Source: Mycolicibacterium rufum
Lineage (GTDB): Bacteria; Actinomycetota; Actinomycetes; Mycobacteriales; Mycobacteriaceae
Length of the DNA stretch: 64,000 nucleotides
Assembly (NCBI RefSeq): GCF_022374875.2
Contig: NZ_CP092427.2
Coordinates: 2,852,001-2,916,000, forward strand
Direction: 5' to 3'
Shown here: positions 57,585 to 62,667 of the stretch, piece after piece
Layout: each line of letters opens with the position of its first letter
Numbering within the stretch: position 1 is the first letter of the stretch
Translations under genes and position numbers: made by a program
The notes under the pieces: generated by a model
The model's database searches: none
Told to the model about the DNA's origin: nothing
Seen by the model: only the letters and a program-made list of their open reading frames with translations

Positions 57585-59624
57585 ATGACAAGCTCCACCA
57601 CCTCTCCACCGATCATCACCAGCGATCTGGTCCTGCTCGACACCGCCGTCGACGGTGACAAGCAAGCGGTCATCGCCCGCATGGTGGGCAGCCTCGCCGC
57701 GGCGGGACGCACCAACGACGCCGACGGACTCGTGGGCGCGGCGATGGCGCGCGAACAGCAGTCGGCCACCGGACTGCCCGGCGGCATCGCGATTCCGCAC
57801 TGCCGGTCGCCCTACGTCGACACCCCGACCATCGGCTTCGCCCGGCTGAGCCCCGCCGTCGACTTCGGCGCCCCGGACGGTCCCGCCGACCTCGCGTTCC
57901 TGATCGCCGCGCCCGACTCCGGCGGCCAGGAGCACATGAAGCTGCTGTCCAGCCTGGCACGGGCGTTGGTGCGCAAGGACTTCGTGGAGTCGCTGCGCAA
58001 CGCGTCGTCGGCCGACGAGGTCGTCAGCCTGGTCGACGGCGTGGTCAACCCCGCACCCGCCGCCGCAGCCCCGGCCACCCCCGCGCCCGCGGCGGCGCCC
58101 GCCGAGAAGCCGGCCGCCAAGACGCTGATCGCGATCACCGCCTGCCCCACCGGTATCGCCCACACCTACATGGCCGCCGACGCCCTGGCCGCCGCGGCCA
58201 AGGAAGCCGGAGTGACGATGGTCGTGGAGACGCAGGGCTCCTCGGGCAGCACCCCGGTGCCCGCCGAGACCATCGCCAAGGCCGACGCGGTCATCTTCGC
58301 CACGGACGTGGGCGTCAAGGACCGTGGCCGGTTCGCCGGCAAGCCCGTCATCGCCTCGGGCGTGAAGCGGGCGATCAACGAGCCGGCCAAGATGGTCGCC
58401 GAAGCCGTTGCCGCAGCCGATGATCCGAACGCGCCGCGGGTCGAGGGCTCGGCGGCCGGCGCTGCGGCCAGCTCCGCGCCGGCAGGCGGCGTCGGCTGGG
58501 GCACCCGCACCCGGCAGATCCTGCTGACCGGCGTCAGCTACATGATCCCGTTCGTCGCCGCGGGTGGTCTGCTGATCGCGCTGGGCTTCCTGTTCGCGGG
58601 CTACGAGATCGCGAACAAGCCCGACGGTGCGACGCAGTCACTGGGCAACATCATCGCGCTCAACAACTCGCTCACCAACCTGCCCAGCGGCGGGTTCACC
58701 CAGTACCTGGGTGCGATTCTGTTCAGTCTCGGCGGTCTGGCGTTCAGCTTCCTGGTGCCCGCACTGGCCGGCTACATCTCGTTCGCGATCGCCGACCGAC
58801 CCGGCATCGCGCCCGGGTTCACCGCGGGGGCGCTGGCCGTGTTCGTCGGCGGCGGCTTCATCGGCGGCATCGTCGGCGGCGTCATCGCCGGCTTCGCGGC
58901 GCTGTGGATCAGCGGTCTCAAAGTGCCGCAATGGTTCCGCGGGCTGATGCCGGTGGTCATCACACCGCTGGGCGCGTCCCTGGTCGTGGGTCTCATCATG
59001 TTCTTCCTGGTGGGTCGTCCGCTCGCACTGATCAACACCGGCCTCACCAACTGGCTCAGCGGACTGTCCGGGACCTCGGCGATCCTGCTCGGTGTCATCC
59101 TCGGCCTGATGATGTGCTTCGACCTCGGCGGCCCGGTGAACAAGGCGGCCTACGCCTTCGCCACCGCCGGCCTGGCCGCGTCGACCACCGCGTCGTTCCA
59201 GGTGATGGCCGCGGTGATGGCCGCGGGCATGGTGCCGCCGCTGGCGATGGCGCTGGCCACCACGGTGCGGCCCGGGCTGTTCAGTGAGCCCGAACGGGAG
59301 AACGGCCGTGCCGCATGGCTTCTCGGGGCGTCGTTCATCTCCGAGGGCGCCATCCCGTTCGCCGCGGCCGACCCGCTGCGCGTCATCCCGTCGATGATGT
59401 TCGGCGGCGCCGTCACCGGCGCGCTGTCCATGGCCTTCGGCGCGACGTCGCGGGCGCCGCACGGCGGCATCTTCGTGCTGTTCGCCATCGACAACAAGCT
59501 CGGCTTCGTCATCGCGCTGCTGGCCGGCACGGTGGCGGCCGCGGTGGCCGTCGTCGCGGCCAAGCAGTTCATCCAACCCGGCGCCAAGAAGGCCGAGCGC
59601 GAGCTCGCGGCCGCCGCGGCCTGA
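57585..59624 (+). CDS. fruA: Fructose-specific PTS EIIABC component
   Basis: A 679-residue three-domain transporter. EIIA occupies about residues 10-150 with phospho-acceptor His72 (GIAIPHCRSP). An Ala/Pro linker leads to EIIB with Cys187 (AITACPTGIAHTYMAADAL). EIIC from about 305 has eight to ten helices and the conserved FDLGGPVNKAAYAFA. It brings fructose in as fructose-1-phosphate, the substrate of FruK. A is N-terminal, so the order is A-B-C. Confidence 0.95.
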   Translation: MTSSTTSPPIITSDLVLLDTAVDGDKQAVIARMVGSLAAAGRTNDADGLVGAAMAREQQSATGLPGGIAIPHCRSPYVDTPTIGFARLSPAVDFGAPDGPADLAFLIAAPDSGGQEHMKLLSSLARALVRKDFVESLRNASSADEVVSLVDGVVNPAPAAAAPATPAPAAAPAEKPAAKTLIAITACPTGIAHTYMAADALAAAAKEAGVTMVVETQGSSGSTPVPAETIAKADAVIFATDVGVKDRGRFAGKPVIASGVKRAINEPAKMVAEAVAAADDPNAPRVEGSAAGAAASSAPAGGVGWGTRTRQILLTGVSYMIPFVAAGGLLIALGFLFAGYEIANKPDGATQSLGNIIALNNSLTNLPSGGFTQYLGAILFSLGGLAFSFLVPALAGYISFAIADRPGIAPGFTAGALAVFVGGGFIGGIVGGVIAGFAALWISGLKVPQWFRGLMPVVITPLGASLVVGLIMFFLVGRPLALINTGLTNWLSGLSGTSAILLGVILGLMMCFDLGGPVNKAAYAFATAGLAASTTASFQVMAAVMAAGMVPPLAMALATTVRPGLFSEPERENGRAAWLLGASFISEGAIPFAAADPLRVIPSMMFGGAVTGALSMAFGATSRAPHGGIFVLFAIDNKLGFVIALLAGTVAAAVAVVAAKQFIQPGAKKAERELAAAAA

Positions 59625-60157: not shown

Positions 60158-60778
60158 GTGCGGCGACTCGGTGCGTTGTTTGCCGCGTTGACGTTGGTCT
60201 TCTTGGTCGCGCCGCCGTCCGCGGGCGCCATCGACCCTCCGGTCATCGATCCCGCCGCTGTTCCCCCTGACGAGACGGGTCCGGACCAGCCGATGGAGCA
60301 GCGGCGGGTCTGCGCCGCCCCGACGGTGTTCCCGAACTCAAACTTCGCTGACCGGCCGTGGGCGAGCGACTACCTCCGGCTGGCCGACGCGCAGCGGTTC
60401 GCGACGGGAGCCGGCGTAACTGTGGCCGTCATCGACACCGGGGTGAACGGGTCGCCGCGGGTGCCTGCGGAACCGGGCGGCGACTTCGTCGACCAGGCCG
60501 GAAACGGGATGTCCGACTGCGACGCCCACGGCACCCTGACCGCCGCCGTCATCGCCGGCCGCCCGGCCCCGACCGACGCGTTCATCGGCGTCGCTCCCGA
60601 TGCGCGGATCCTCTCGCTGCGCCAGACCTCCGACAGCTTCCAGCCGGTCGGCACCCGCACCGATCCCAACGACCCGAACGCCACGCAGACCGCCGGGTCG
60701 CTGCGCAGCCTCGCCCGCGCGATCGTGCACGCCGCCAACATCGGGGCCCAGGTCATCAACATCAGCGAGGCGGCTTAC
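60158..60778 (+). pseudogene. mycP1: Truncated mycosin protease MycP1 (ESX-1)
   Basis: About 207 N-terminal residues of a type VII secretion subtilisin-like protease. GTG at 60158 starts a signal peptide (LGALFAALTLVFLVAPPSAGA). Catalytic Asp93 (VIDTGVNG) and His124 (DCDAHGT) are present, but the sequence stops resembling MycP after NISEAAY. The catalytic serine, the rest of the protease domain and the C-terminal membrane anchor are gone. The frame runs on to 61039 as antisense of espG1. In M. tuberculosis and, as I recall, M. smegmatis, mycP1 ends the ESX-1 locus; in M. smegmatis it adjoins ptsH as here. Confidence 0.88.
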
Positions 60779-61127
60779 GACACACCACGAAGCGCACCAT
60801 TTTGCCACCGACGTCGCGGCGCCACCACCGGCAGTCCAGCGTGCGGTCCGGCCTGCTCAGCGCGTCCACCATCGCGGCGACCTCGGGATGGGGATCGCCG
60901 AACGCGGTCAGGATGCCCTGGGCGGTCAGATCGCGGGTCACCTGCTCCCACACGATCCGGCGTTGATCCTCGTACGGGATGTTCGGGCGGATGCCCAGGG
61001 CCAGCGGGAAGTCGACGAGATGCAGCAGGTCCGCGATGACCAGCATGCCGTCGATGGTGACCTCGACGCCGACGACGTCGTCGTAGTGGGTGGGTTCAGC
61101 GTCCCCGAACAGCGGGCTGGCCATCAC
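60762..61127 (-). pseudogene. espG1: Truncated ESX-1 chaperone EspG1
   Basis: The 121-codon frame encodes only the N-terminal 40-45% of EspG1 (about 280 residues in M. tuberculosis). VGVEVTIDGMLVIADLLHLVDFP and the motif DCRWWRRDVGGKMVRFVVCRK agree closely with EspG1 from memory. The last four codons (RPPR or so) and the stop come from the antisense of mycP1. EspG1 is the cytosolic chaperone of ESX-1 PE/PPE substrates. The start (GTG 61127, ATG 61124) overlaps the espF stop. Confidence 0.87.
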
Positions 61128-61450
61128 CGCGCCAGCCGCTCGCCGGACGCCTCGTCGGTGGCGTCGTACCGGTGCGCCGCCGAGGTCAGGTTGTCCTCGA
61201 GCGCGCGGGATACGCCCGCGACGCAGGCCGCGGCCTCGGACCGGTGCTGCTGGATCGCCTCCACCGCGGCCGCCGTGGACCAGGCGATCACACCGTGCGA
61301 CGTCCGGATGCGGGTGTCCACCCCGGCGACGGCGCCGGCGGCGGTCGTCATCTCGGCGGCGGCCTGACCGTGTCGGGCCGCGAGTTCGCGCAGGTGTGCG
61401 GTGGTCACCTCGAGGGCGTCATACGACATGGCGGTGTCTTTCTCGGTCAC
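61124..61450 (-). CDS. espF: ESX-1 secretion-associated protein, EspF/EspC-like
   Basis: A small helical protein of the EspC/EspF (DUF2580, WXG100-like) family, about 101-108 residues depending on start (GTG 61450 overlaps the espE stop; ATG 61429). The two helices are split by a HGVIAW turn. The order espE-espF-espG1 matches the start of ESX-1 loci. In intact systems EspF is co-secreted with EspE. It looks undamaged even though the machinery is missing nearby. Confidence 0.82.
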   Translation of the reverse strand: MTEKDTAMSYDALEVTTAHLRELAARHGQAAAEMTTAAGAVAGVDTRIRTSHGVIAWSTAAAVEAIQQHRSEAAACVAGVSRALEDNLTSAAHRYDATDEASGERLAR

Positions 61451-62667
61451 TGCGGCGGGCGGGTGGCTGCGGGCGCGGGTGCGCGCGGCGGCGCGGCGGC
61501 CGGAGGCGCGGAGGCCGCGGCCGGCTCGCCGGGCGTCGCGACAGCCTCCGGAACAGTCGGCTCGGCGACATCGCCGTCGTCGCCGCCCGGCTCGGCCGTT
61601 TCGTCCTCGGGCTCGTCCCCGGTGCTGGACTCTCCCGCATTCGGTGTGCGGTCGGTCGGTTCGGTGGGCTGCGCCGATGTCGCCGTCGACAGCGCCTGTC
61701 CTGCCGCGGTGACCACTGCGGTCATCGCAGCGGCCAGCGGCGCCACCGCGGAGCCGATCGCACCGCCCACCGCGCCGAACACCGACGACATCGCGGCCAT
61801 CGGATCCGCGGACGCCGCAGCGGCCGGTGCTGTCTGTGCCGTGGGCGGCGCGTCCGCGGCGGGCGCACAGTGCATCGGCGCGGGCGCAGCATCCGGAACC
61901 GGCGCGGGCGGGCCGACGGCCGTGGGGTCTGCGATGCTCGGGACCGGCCTAGGCGCGCGGCCGGGCTCGTCGTCACGGTCCGTCTCGGCGCCGGGACGGC
62001 GCTCCTCGTCATCGGTGGTCGGCATCGGCTCCTCGTCGAGCGCCGGCGGCGCGGCCTTGCGGGTGAGCGCGGAGTAGCCGTCGGCGAGCCGGCGCAGCTC
62101 GGCGGCGTTCTCGCCGGTCTCGGATGCCAGGTTGGCGAGCTCGGTGCTGCACACCACCATCGCGGTGTTGACCGCCGTCATCTCCACCGCGGCCTTGAGC
62201 GCCTTGCCCACCCCGGGAATCAGCGCGAGCGACCAGGTGGCGTAGCCCAGCGTGGACAGGTGGTCGGACTGGTCGTCGAGCTTGCCGCGGTGATAGTCGA
62301 CCTGAAACGCCTCCCGGGCGACGACGGTCTGCACGTCGCGGTCCAGCACGGCCAGCGCCGCGGCCGACGCGGACTGCCGGCGGTTCGCCGACGCGTACGC
62401 CTGCGACCCGGTGCCCGCCCAGCCCTCGCGCGGAGAGGCGGAGTCGACGGTCTGACCGGCGCCGGTGAAGCCGGCCGCGCCCTGTCCGAACGCCTCGCCC
62501 GGATCGGGCCGGCCCCACCCGGTGGTCAGCCGCATCCCGGCGATCAGCAGCTGACCCGCGTCGAGGATCTCCGAGCCGGACGACGCCTTCGCGACACGCG
62601 CGCCGACGTTGCCCAATCCGCCGTCGATGACTTTGCCGAACCCGCCGGCAACATCGGACATCTCCAC
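61447..62667 (-). CDS. espE: ESX-1 secretion-associated protein, EspE-like
   Basis: A 406-residue protein with an N-terminal EspA/EspE-type helical domain (about residues 1-200; WAGTGSQAYASANRRQSA carries the turn-like WxG) and a hydrophobic helix (ALIPGVGKALKAAVEMTA). The C-terminal half is long, disordered and rich in Ala, Pro, Glu and Asp. EspE and EspF are ESX-1 substrates in M. smegmatis and M. marinum. GTG at 62667 or ATG at 62661 are possible starts. The frame is intact. Confidence 0.82.
   Translation of the reverse strand: MEMSDVAGGFGKVIDGGLGNVGARVAKASSGSEILDAGQLLIAGMRLTTGWGRPDPGEAFGQGAAGFTGAGQTVDSASPREGWAGTGSQAYASANRRQSASAAALAVLDRDVQTVVAREAFQVDYHRGKLDDQSDHLSTLGYATWSLALIPGVGKALKAAVEMTAVNTAMVVCSTELANLASETGENAAELRRLADGYSALTRKAAPPALDEEPMPTTDDEERRPGAETDRDDEPGRAPRPVPSIADPTAVGPPAPVPDAAPAPMHCAPAADAPPTAQTAPAAAASADPMAAMSSVFGAVGGAIGSAVAPLAAAMTAVVTAAGQALSTATSAQPTEPTDRTPNAGESSTGDEPEDETAEPGGDDGDVAEPTVPEAVATPGEPAAASAPPAAAPPRAPAPAATRPPQ

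What the first reader, a model, noticed from the sequence alone, without database searches (positions are those of the whole stretch)
60158..61127. Natural RD1-like deletion scar: mycP1 and espG1 N-terminal halves joined head-on
The mycP1 frame (plus) loses homology after NISEAAY at about 60778, and the espG1 frame (minus) loses homology after its CRK at about 60774-60782. Both therefore break at the same point. In M. tuberculosis ESX-1, espG1 and mycP1 lie at opposite ends of the locus and face each other, so a single deletion of the interior predicts exactly this structure. The deletion would remove espH, eccA1, eccB1, eccC1, PE35/PPE68, esxB, esxA, espI, eccD1 and eccE1. It resembles the RD1 loss in BCG and M. 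microti but probably arose independently, because the breakpoints are inside espG1 and mycP1. Adjacent ptsH confirms the ancestral locus, as in M. smegmatis.
Basis: partly seen in the sequence, partly recalled or inferred. Interest (0 to 1): 0.9.

Follow-up and report, generated by a model that had tools for sequence, protein, structure and literature searches.

The report
Secretion locus repeatedly deleted, same cut
This mycobacterium has lost its whole ESX-1 protein secretion machine through one clean deletion that left two half genes facing each other, and several related species appear to have lost it independently at the same base pair, which points to a breakage hotspot of unknown cause.

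Summary
mycP1 codons 1-205 (plus, 60158-60774) meet espG1 codons 1-117 (minus, 61127-60775) at a bare junction. Both hold only the N-terminal part of their family. No ESX-1 EccB or EccD lies elsewhere in the genome: the two copies of each belong to ESX-4 and to an ESX-5-like system on a 264-kb contig. Intact M. chubuense has 22.3 kb of ESX-1 there.
The larger finding is recurrence. Seven species carry the head-on scar. In six, mycP1 ends at the same nucleotide; in the seventh, 114 bp later. espG1 ends at one of two nucleotides 27 bp apart. Four scarred species are sisters of species with intact mycP1; flank and remnant trees both need 6 changes, and one origin is rejected (p-AU 4e-6). In M. 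iranicum H39 the remnant matches its intact sister to within 7 nt of the junction. Homology between the break sites is unremarkable.
Best reading: 4 to 7 independent deletions at a shared hotspot, each abolishing ESX-1. The cause of the hotspot is open. ESX-3 is also missing here.

The parts
60158..60774 (+). mycP1 remnant: codons 1-205 plus two bases of codon 206; signal peptide region and the Asp and His parts of the subtilase domain, catalytic Ser half missing. Frame stays open as a fusion to 61039
   Evidence: TIGR03921 positions 1-126/353 and PF00082 1-119/288; break defined by alignment to intact relatives. That the catalytic Ser lies in the lost half is established knowledge of subtilases applied to the intact 449-aa M. 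kyogaense ORF
60774..60775 (.). deletion junction GAGGCGGC|TTACGACA (site M1 of mycP1 joined to site E1 of espG1); no inserted bases, 1-bp overlap at most
60775..61127 (-). espG1 remnant, codons 1-117 plus two bases of codon 118 (GTG start at 61127); the frame runs a few codons past the junction and stops at 60762
   Evidence: PF14011 positions 1-94/245; 97.4% aa identity over 116 residues to intact M. chubuense espG1
61124..61450 (-). espF-like gene, intact, outside the deletion
   Evidence: PF10824 T7SS_ESX_EspC, 76.6 bits; next to espG1 also in several intact relatives
61447..62667 (-). espE-like gene, intact, outside the deletion
   Evidence: PF18879 EspA_EspE, 76.8 bits
59660..59917 (+). 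ptsH (HPr), left flank of the ancestral locus
   Evidence: TIGR01003 83.7 bits; beside mycP1 in intact and scarred relatives
57585..59624 (+). fruA, fructose PTS transporter, left flank
   Evidence: used for the flank tree

Best explanation
The window carries the scar of a clean deletion of about 22 kb (size taken from M. chubuense) that removed the ESX-1 core and cut mycP1 and espG1 in half, so ESX-1 secretion is abolished (inferred from gene content). The same kind of deletion happened independently elsewhere in the group: 7 scarred species, 7 losses if the locus is never regained, 5 losses plus 1 regain or 4 losses plus 2 regains at equal parsimony. The breaks reuse the same nucleotides: M1 (mycP1 nt 617|618) in 6 of 7, M2 (114 bp on) in 1; espG1 site E1 in 4, E2 (27 bp nearer the start codon) in 3, in the combinations M1E1, M1E2 and M2E1. 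Shown: loss, recurrence on trees, shared breakpoints, no unusual homology at the joints. Inferred: a local hotspot, most likely sequence-directed strand breakage at both ends followed by near-blunt joining (mycobacterial Ku/LigD end joining would fit). Open: what makes the breaks. The scars look young, since the remnants still show low dN/dS.
For: Truncation of both families. No ESX-1 EccB/EccD in the genome; in the five other scarred genomes searched (G054, G182, G199, G237, G310) 11 of 11 EccBs were compared and none is ESX-1-like (at most 37% identity to M. chubuense EccB1). Scar aligned in 7 species; M1-type pattern in 5 of 396 genus genomes. Of 80 named loci with mycP1N (best 80 of 90), 75 have the C-half without stops, 4 are scarred, 1 ends at a contig edge. 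Flank tree of 52 rows: 6 changes, 6 forced by starred branches. mycP1N tree: 6 changes, one clade p-AU 3.9e-6. H39 shares variants with intact M. iranicum DSM 45541 at 7 and 10 nt from the junction that the other scarred species lack. In the mycP1 C-half tree M. chubuense and M. kyogaense stay together (100/97). Break-site similarity is unremarkable among all site pairs, while repeats of 8-12 bp go unused. Four or more of 5 independent events at one mycP1 site: about 5e-9 for 1000 candidate sites, 6e-4 for 20.
Against: Identical breakpoints are also what one old event would leave, and 27-bp slippage could turn M1E1 into M1E2. Regain is allowed by parsimony; with only 4 losses, 3 at M1, the chance estimate rises to about 4e-6 for 1000 sites and 1e-2 for 20 (own arithmetic). 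M. chubuense has ESX-3 while the window, G054 and PSTR-4-N lack it, so regain of loci there is conceivable. mycP1 nt 200-617 of H39 and its sister are less alike (86%) than nt 1-200 (95%), a sign of recombination. The last 57 nt of mycP1 do not tell scar from sister origin for H39 and G199. The motif YTRCNAC, which singles out E1 and E2 in M. chubuense espG1, is absent from both genes of M. iranicum DSM 45541 and from espG1 of M. kyogaense and AZCC_0083. Remnant dN/dS is low, which would also fit continued use. No reads were seen.
Confidence: 0.76

Rival explanations
1. One ancient deletion was inherited by the whole group, and the intact species regained ESX-1 later by recombination across the remnants; the 27-bp difference is secondary slippage.
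For: Identical breakpoints in 6 species; a mix of losses and one or two regains is as parsimonious as losses alone within the window's clade; ESX-3 present in M. chubuense but absent in the window, G054 and PSTR-4-N; uneven mycP1 similarity between H39 and its sister.
Against: One clade rejected for the remnants; explaining all seven by one event needs several regains; H39 and its intact sister agree to within 7 nt of the junction, which import by crossover in espG1 would be expected to erase; the mycP1 C-half tree does not place the intact sisters elsewhere (only 24 of 42 splits shared with the flank tree); M2E1 of OAS707 keeps 114 bp more of mycP1, so it cannot come from M1E1 by further loss.
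Confidence: 0.14
2. The scar allele arose once and spread between species by homologous recombination.
For: Same junction in separate lineages; mycobacteria exchange chromosomal DNA (established for M. smegmatis, recalled).
Against: Remnants group with their own sisters; on the espG1 side H39 and PSTR-4-N carry their sisters' variants close to the junction; on the mycP1 side scars are not systematically more alike than scar and sister, though the last 57 nt are uninformative for some.
Confidence: 0.04
3. The half genes are kept because short MycP1 and EspG1 proteins (or the overlapping frames) still work, so the endpoints reflect selection on protein rather than a breakage hotspot.
For: mycP1 frame open in 7 of 7; dN/dS 0.03-0.14 for mycP1N against intact sisters or nearest intact relatives.
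Against: Intact mycP1N pairs show 0.02-0.17, as expected for young scars; espG1N of scarred against intact species reaches 0.14 where intact pairs stay at 0.03-0.07, a hint of relaxation if anything (few changes); the catalytic Ser half and most of EspG are gone; protein selection does not fix a break to one nucleotide.
Confidence: 0.05
4. Ordinary microhomology deletions that coincide by chance.
For: A TGC or TAC word stands at both ends; DNA at M1 and E1 is locally GC-poor.
Against: Overlap at the joint is 0-1 bp in M. chubuense terms, and the base before TGC in the scars is most likely the espG1 base (T, while mycP1 of nearly all intact relatives has C or G; two, L034 and L035, have T), so annealing at TGC was probably not used; longer repeats unused; chance estimates.
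Confidence: 0.01

Closest known systems
RD1 deletions of BCG and M. microti (ESX-1 core loss)
   Same: Loss of ESX-1 genes by an interior deletion; loss of ESX-1 function expected
   Different: Here the breakpoints lie inside mycP1 and espG1, remove the whole core, and recur at the same base in several species. RD1 extents are recalled; PMC4791881 passages call RD1 a partial deletion
Repeated loss of ESX-1 in slow growers (Newton-Foot 2016, PMC4791881; passages seen)
   Same: ESX-1 deleted on numerous occasions
   Different: The passages state that ESX-1 is present in all the other fast growers studied and give no breakpoints; here Mycolicibacterium-type species lose it at a fixed site
Site-specific excision elements such as skin of B. 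subtilis or the nifD element (recalled)
   Same: A defined block is removed exactly, between fixed points inside genes
   Different: No recombinase among the 21 interior ORFs scanned and no repeated core at the ends

Membership tests
RD1-like ESX-1 deletion | ESX-1 core genes missing from the genome | tested here: met
   EccB and EccD only at the ESX-4 and C2 loci; esxA/esxB not searched directly
RD1-like ESX-1 deletion | ancestral flanks still in place on both sides | tested here: met
   ptsH on one side, espF on the other, as in intact M. chubuense
RD1 of BCG itself (same event) | same endpoints as BCG RD1 | not tested
   BCG sequence not compared; endpoints recalled to lie elsewhere
functional mycosin (TIGR03921) | full-length domain over the curated cut-off | tested here: not met
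   162 bits against 278.75; positions 1-126/353
functional EspG (PF14011) | full-length domain | tested here: not met
   over the cut-off but only positions 1-94/245
microhomology-mediated deletion | shared bases at the joint above random | tested here: not met
   0-1 bp; break-site pairs lie within the bulk of all site pairs in M. chubuense
site-specific recombination element | matching core sequence at both ends | tested here: inconclusive
   YTRCNAC at M1, E1, E2 in M. chubuense but absent in some sisters; derived after the fact
site-specific recombination element | recombinase coded in or near the element | tested here: inconclusive
   none among 21 interior ORFs scanned, some of them overlapping alternative frames and not all against both libraries; the rest of the genome was not scanned

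The most novel reading that the evidence does not exclude
ESX-1 is removed by a dedicated, sequence-guided excision: an enzyme (host, plasmid or phage) cuts at fixed points in mycP1 and espG1 and the ends are joined, so that ESX-1 behaves like a disposable island, perhaps with intact and excised forms coexisting in natural populations. This would account for the reused nucleotides without homology and for remnants that still look selected.
Probability: 0.2. Interest if true: 0.92.

Novelty: new variant of a known kind. Interest (0 to 1): 0.72.

Why it matters
Loss of ESX-1 is the classic attenuating change in the BCG vaccine, and such losses are usually taken to have arbitrary endpoints. A base-exact, repeated deletion in separate species would mean that the locus has a built-in weak point or an excision route, would make the rate of ESX-1 loss measurable in harmless laboratory mycobacteria, and would change how absence of ESX-1 in a genome is read (recent and recurrent rather than ancestral).

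Tried and rejected
Homology as the cause: ungapped similarity of M1/E1, M1/E2 and M2/E1 ranked against all site pairs of M. chubuense mycP1 x espG1; not unusual. Secondary structure: on the top strand M1 and E2 lie in the least, not the most, structured 60-nt windows. Duplex stability: in 40-60-nt windows M1 and E1 are GC-poor, M2 and E2 are not; weak. Topoisomerase I: a mycobacterial strong-site oligonucleotide contains CGCTTG (PMC6101483, passages), which resembles the scar, but the intact mycP1 site is CTGC or GTGC and a TT|G exchange would not give the observed bases; left as an idea. The motif YTRCNAC was derived after seeing the sites and fails in some sisters (the 'E1 expected' figure printed there was set wrongly, the true distance is 353, so ACS1612 espG1 has the motif at E1, E2 and one more place). 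Spread of the scar by gene transfer: disfavoured. ESX-3 absence was followed to closed-up flanks at stop codons of neighbouring genes, which needs no hotspot. Literature: no account of this scar in the listed part of searches; passages of PMC4791881 and PMC6101483 seen; a term search in PMC11206017 found nothing.

Rows dropped before counts: the flank tree kept loci with at least 1800 filled flank bases, tblastn hits under 60% identity were not used, and 13 duplicate loci were left out. Only the strongest matches of the 396 genomes were listed. One search covers M1-type joins with a CGCCACCA word 12 to 72 bases on and no mismatch; M2-type joins were not surveyed.

Full report
OBSERVATION. The plus-strand frame starting at 60158 is mycP1: mycosin model TIGR03921 matches at positions 1-126 of 353 only. 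The minus-strand frame starting at 61127 is espG1: PF14011 matches at 1-94 of 245. Alignment to intact and scarred relatives puts the join at 60774|60775. Past the join the mycP1 frame stays open to 61039 in espG1 antisense, and the espG1 frame stops at 60762. espF and espE follow on the minus strand; ptsH, fruA and fruK precede.

WHAT IS MISSING. The window's genome (6.1 Mb, 3 contigs, completeness 100) has two EccB and two EccD genes: one of each beside the full-length chromosomal mycosin near C1 1.80 Mb (called ESX-4 from its gene order, recalled) and one of each on C2. The C2 system's EccC is closest to EccC5 among solved structures, and the region resembles a M. crocinum plasmid (80.5%). 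So no ESX-1 EccB or EccD is left; esxA and esxB were not searched directly. In M. chubuense DSM 44219 the two break sites are 22.3 kb apart, with EccE, EspB, EccD, a CbiA-type ATPase at the espI position, two WXG100 genes, PPE, PE, EccCb, EccCa, EccB and EccA between them. espH was not recognised.

RECURRENCE. A search with the window's junction in 396 genomes of the genus gave matches running straight across it in G054, G237, G182 and G199 besides the window (listed rows only). An exact pattern search found the same five of 396. G310 has the two halves about 100 bp apart. A scan of named genomes kept the best 80 of 90 loci with mycP1N: 75 have the C-half with no stop, 4 are scarred (M. chlorophenolicum DSM 43826, Mycobacterium sp. 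PSTR-4-N, M. iranicum H39, Mycobacterium sp. OAS707), 1 ends at a contig edge. In all, 7 scarred species: the window's, M. chlorophenolicum, G054, PSTR-4-N, H39, G199, OAS707.

BREAKPOINTS. In 6 of 7 mycP1 ends after nt 617 (M1, GA(G/A)GC(C/G)GC|); in OAS707 it ends 114 nt later (M2). espG1 begins at E1 (|TTRCGACA, codon 118; window, M. chlorophenolicum, PSTR-4-N, OAS707) or at E2 (|TTGCC, codon 109; G054, H39, G199). The combinations M1E1, M1E2 and M2E1 show that each end is reused on its own. In intact relatives the mycP1 site mostly reads CTGC or GTGC (T instead of C or G before it in L034 and L035); the T in the scars is most likely the espG1 base. Overlap at the joint is 0-1 bp in M. chubuense terms.

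INDEPENDENCE. In a tree of fruK+fruA+ptsH (52 rows) the scar label needs 6 changes, 6 being forced by starred branches: M. chlorophenolicum is sister to M. chubuense, PSTR-4-N to M. kyogaense, H39 to M. iranicum DSM 45541, OAS707 to ACS1612, all four sisters having a complete mycP1. The remnant mycP1N itself also needs 6 changes, keeps these four pairs, and rejects one clade (p-AU 3.9e-6). All 45 unscarred rows have the C-half. M. chubuense and M. kyogaense have an ESX-1 EccB; in DSM 45541 espG1 lies about 25 kb from mycP1, on what the contig numbers indicate is the same contig; the cores of DSM 45541 and ACS1612 were not annotated. In espG1, H39 and DSM 45541 share variants 7 and 10 nt right of the junction that no other scarred species has (95-97% identity in the next 180 nt, against at most 85% to other scarred species). 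So the H39 scar was not imported. The C-half tree keeps M. chubuense with M. kyogaense (100/97) and shows no foreign placement of the sisters, though only 24 of 42 splits are shared with the flank tree. Irreversible loss means 7 events; 5 losses plus 1 regain, or 4 losses plus 2 regains, cost 6 changes.

AGE AND SELECTION. Nei-Gojobori dN/dS between remnant and intact sister (for G199 its nearest intact relatives) is 0.03-0.14 for mycP1N; intact pairs give 0.02-0.17. For espG1N scarred against intact species (close relatives for four, more distant ones for H39, G199 and OAS707) it is 0.03-0.14, intact pairs 0.03-0.07; the upper values rest on few changes. The simplest reading is that each deletion is recent. 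Continued use of the short proteins is not excluded.

MECHANISM. Homology does not explain the choice of sites: in M. chubuense M1E1 and M1E2 lie in the top 4-63% of all site pairs depending on the window compared, M2E1 in the top 72-98%, while exact direct repeats of 8-12 bp between the genes are unused. Hairpins do not. M1 and E1 sit in GC-poor stretches. YTRCNAC occurs in M. chubuense mycP1 only at nt 360 and at M1, and in espG1 only at E1 and E2; it was derived after the fact and is absent in some sisters. If 5 independent events drew from 1000 mycP1 positions, 4 or more at one site has probability about 5e-9; from 20 positions, 6e-4. With 4 events and 3 at one site the figures are about 4e-6 and 1e-2 (own arithmetic). 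I therefore favour sequence-directed breakage and near-blunt joining; the breaking agent is unknown.

LIMITS. ESX-1 loss without a mycP1 remnant seems common: of 59 same-genus genomes, 36 have a strong mycP1N match (34 of them in an open frame of at least 449 aa; the others are G054 and a contig-edge hit in G008), 20 have only matches at paralogue level, and 3 incomplete genomes have none. The scars are thus one class of loss. Reads and further strains of each species were not available. EccB content of M. chlorophenolicum was not searched.

KNOWN. Newton-Foot et al. 2016 (PMC4791881, passages) report ESX-1 losses in slow growers, ESX-1 in all other fast growers studied, and ESX-3 in all mycobacteria studied except M. 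chubuense. My searches (listed parts) show no paper describing this recurrent scar.

Noticed in passing
G000:C1:2640012 region (L208); also L209, L210, L211, L212: No ESX-3-type EccB was found in the window's genome, G054, M. kyogaense (G019), G237 or G199; the genes that flank ESX-3 in M. chubuense are closed up there to about 6-15 bp between stop codons, while M. chubuense DSM 44219 and M. iranicum H39 keep ESX-3 at that place. The window's chromosome is left with ESX-4 alone.
   Followed up: partly
G000:C2:170000-189990 (L008) and G237:C62 (L232): A plasmid-like contig carries an ESX-5-like system; 19.2 kb of it is 99.6% identical in PSTR-4-N, another scarred species, so the element moved recently.
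   Followed up: partly
L145, L146, L147: No espF or espE like the window's was found next to the espG1 remnant in H39, G199 and OAS707; relatives of the last two have them, the sister of H39 gave no hit either.
   Followed up: partly
G000:C1:1951003-1951722: A further weak mycosin-like match (93.5 bits, below the cut-off) away from the EccB loci.
   Followed up: no
L089 and L051, mycP1 nt 200-617: H39 and M. iranicum DSM 45541 are 95% alike in mycP1 nt 1-200 and beside the espG1 junction but 86% in nt 200-617, a likely recombinant tract in one of them.
   Followed up: no
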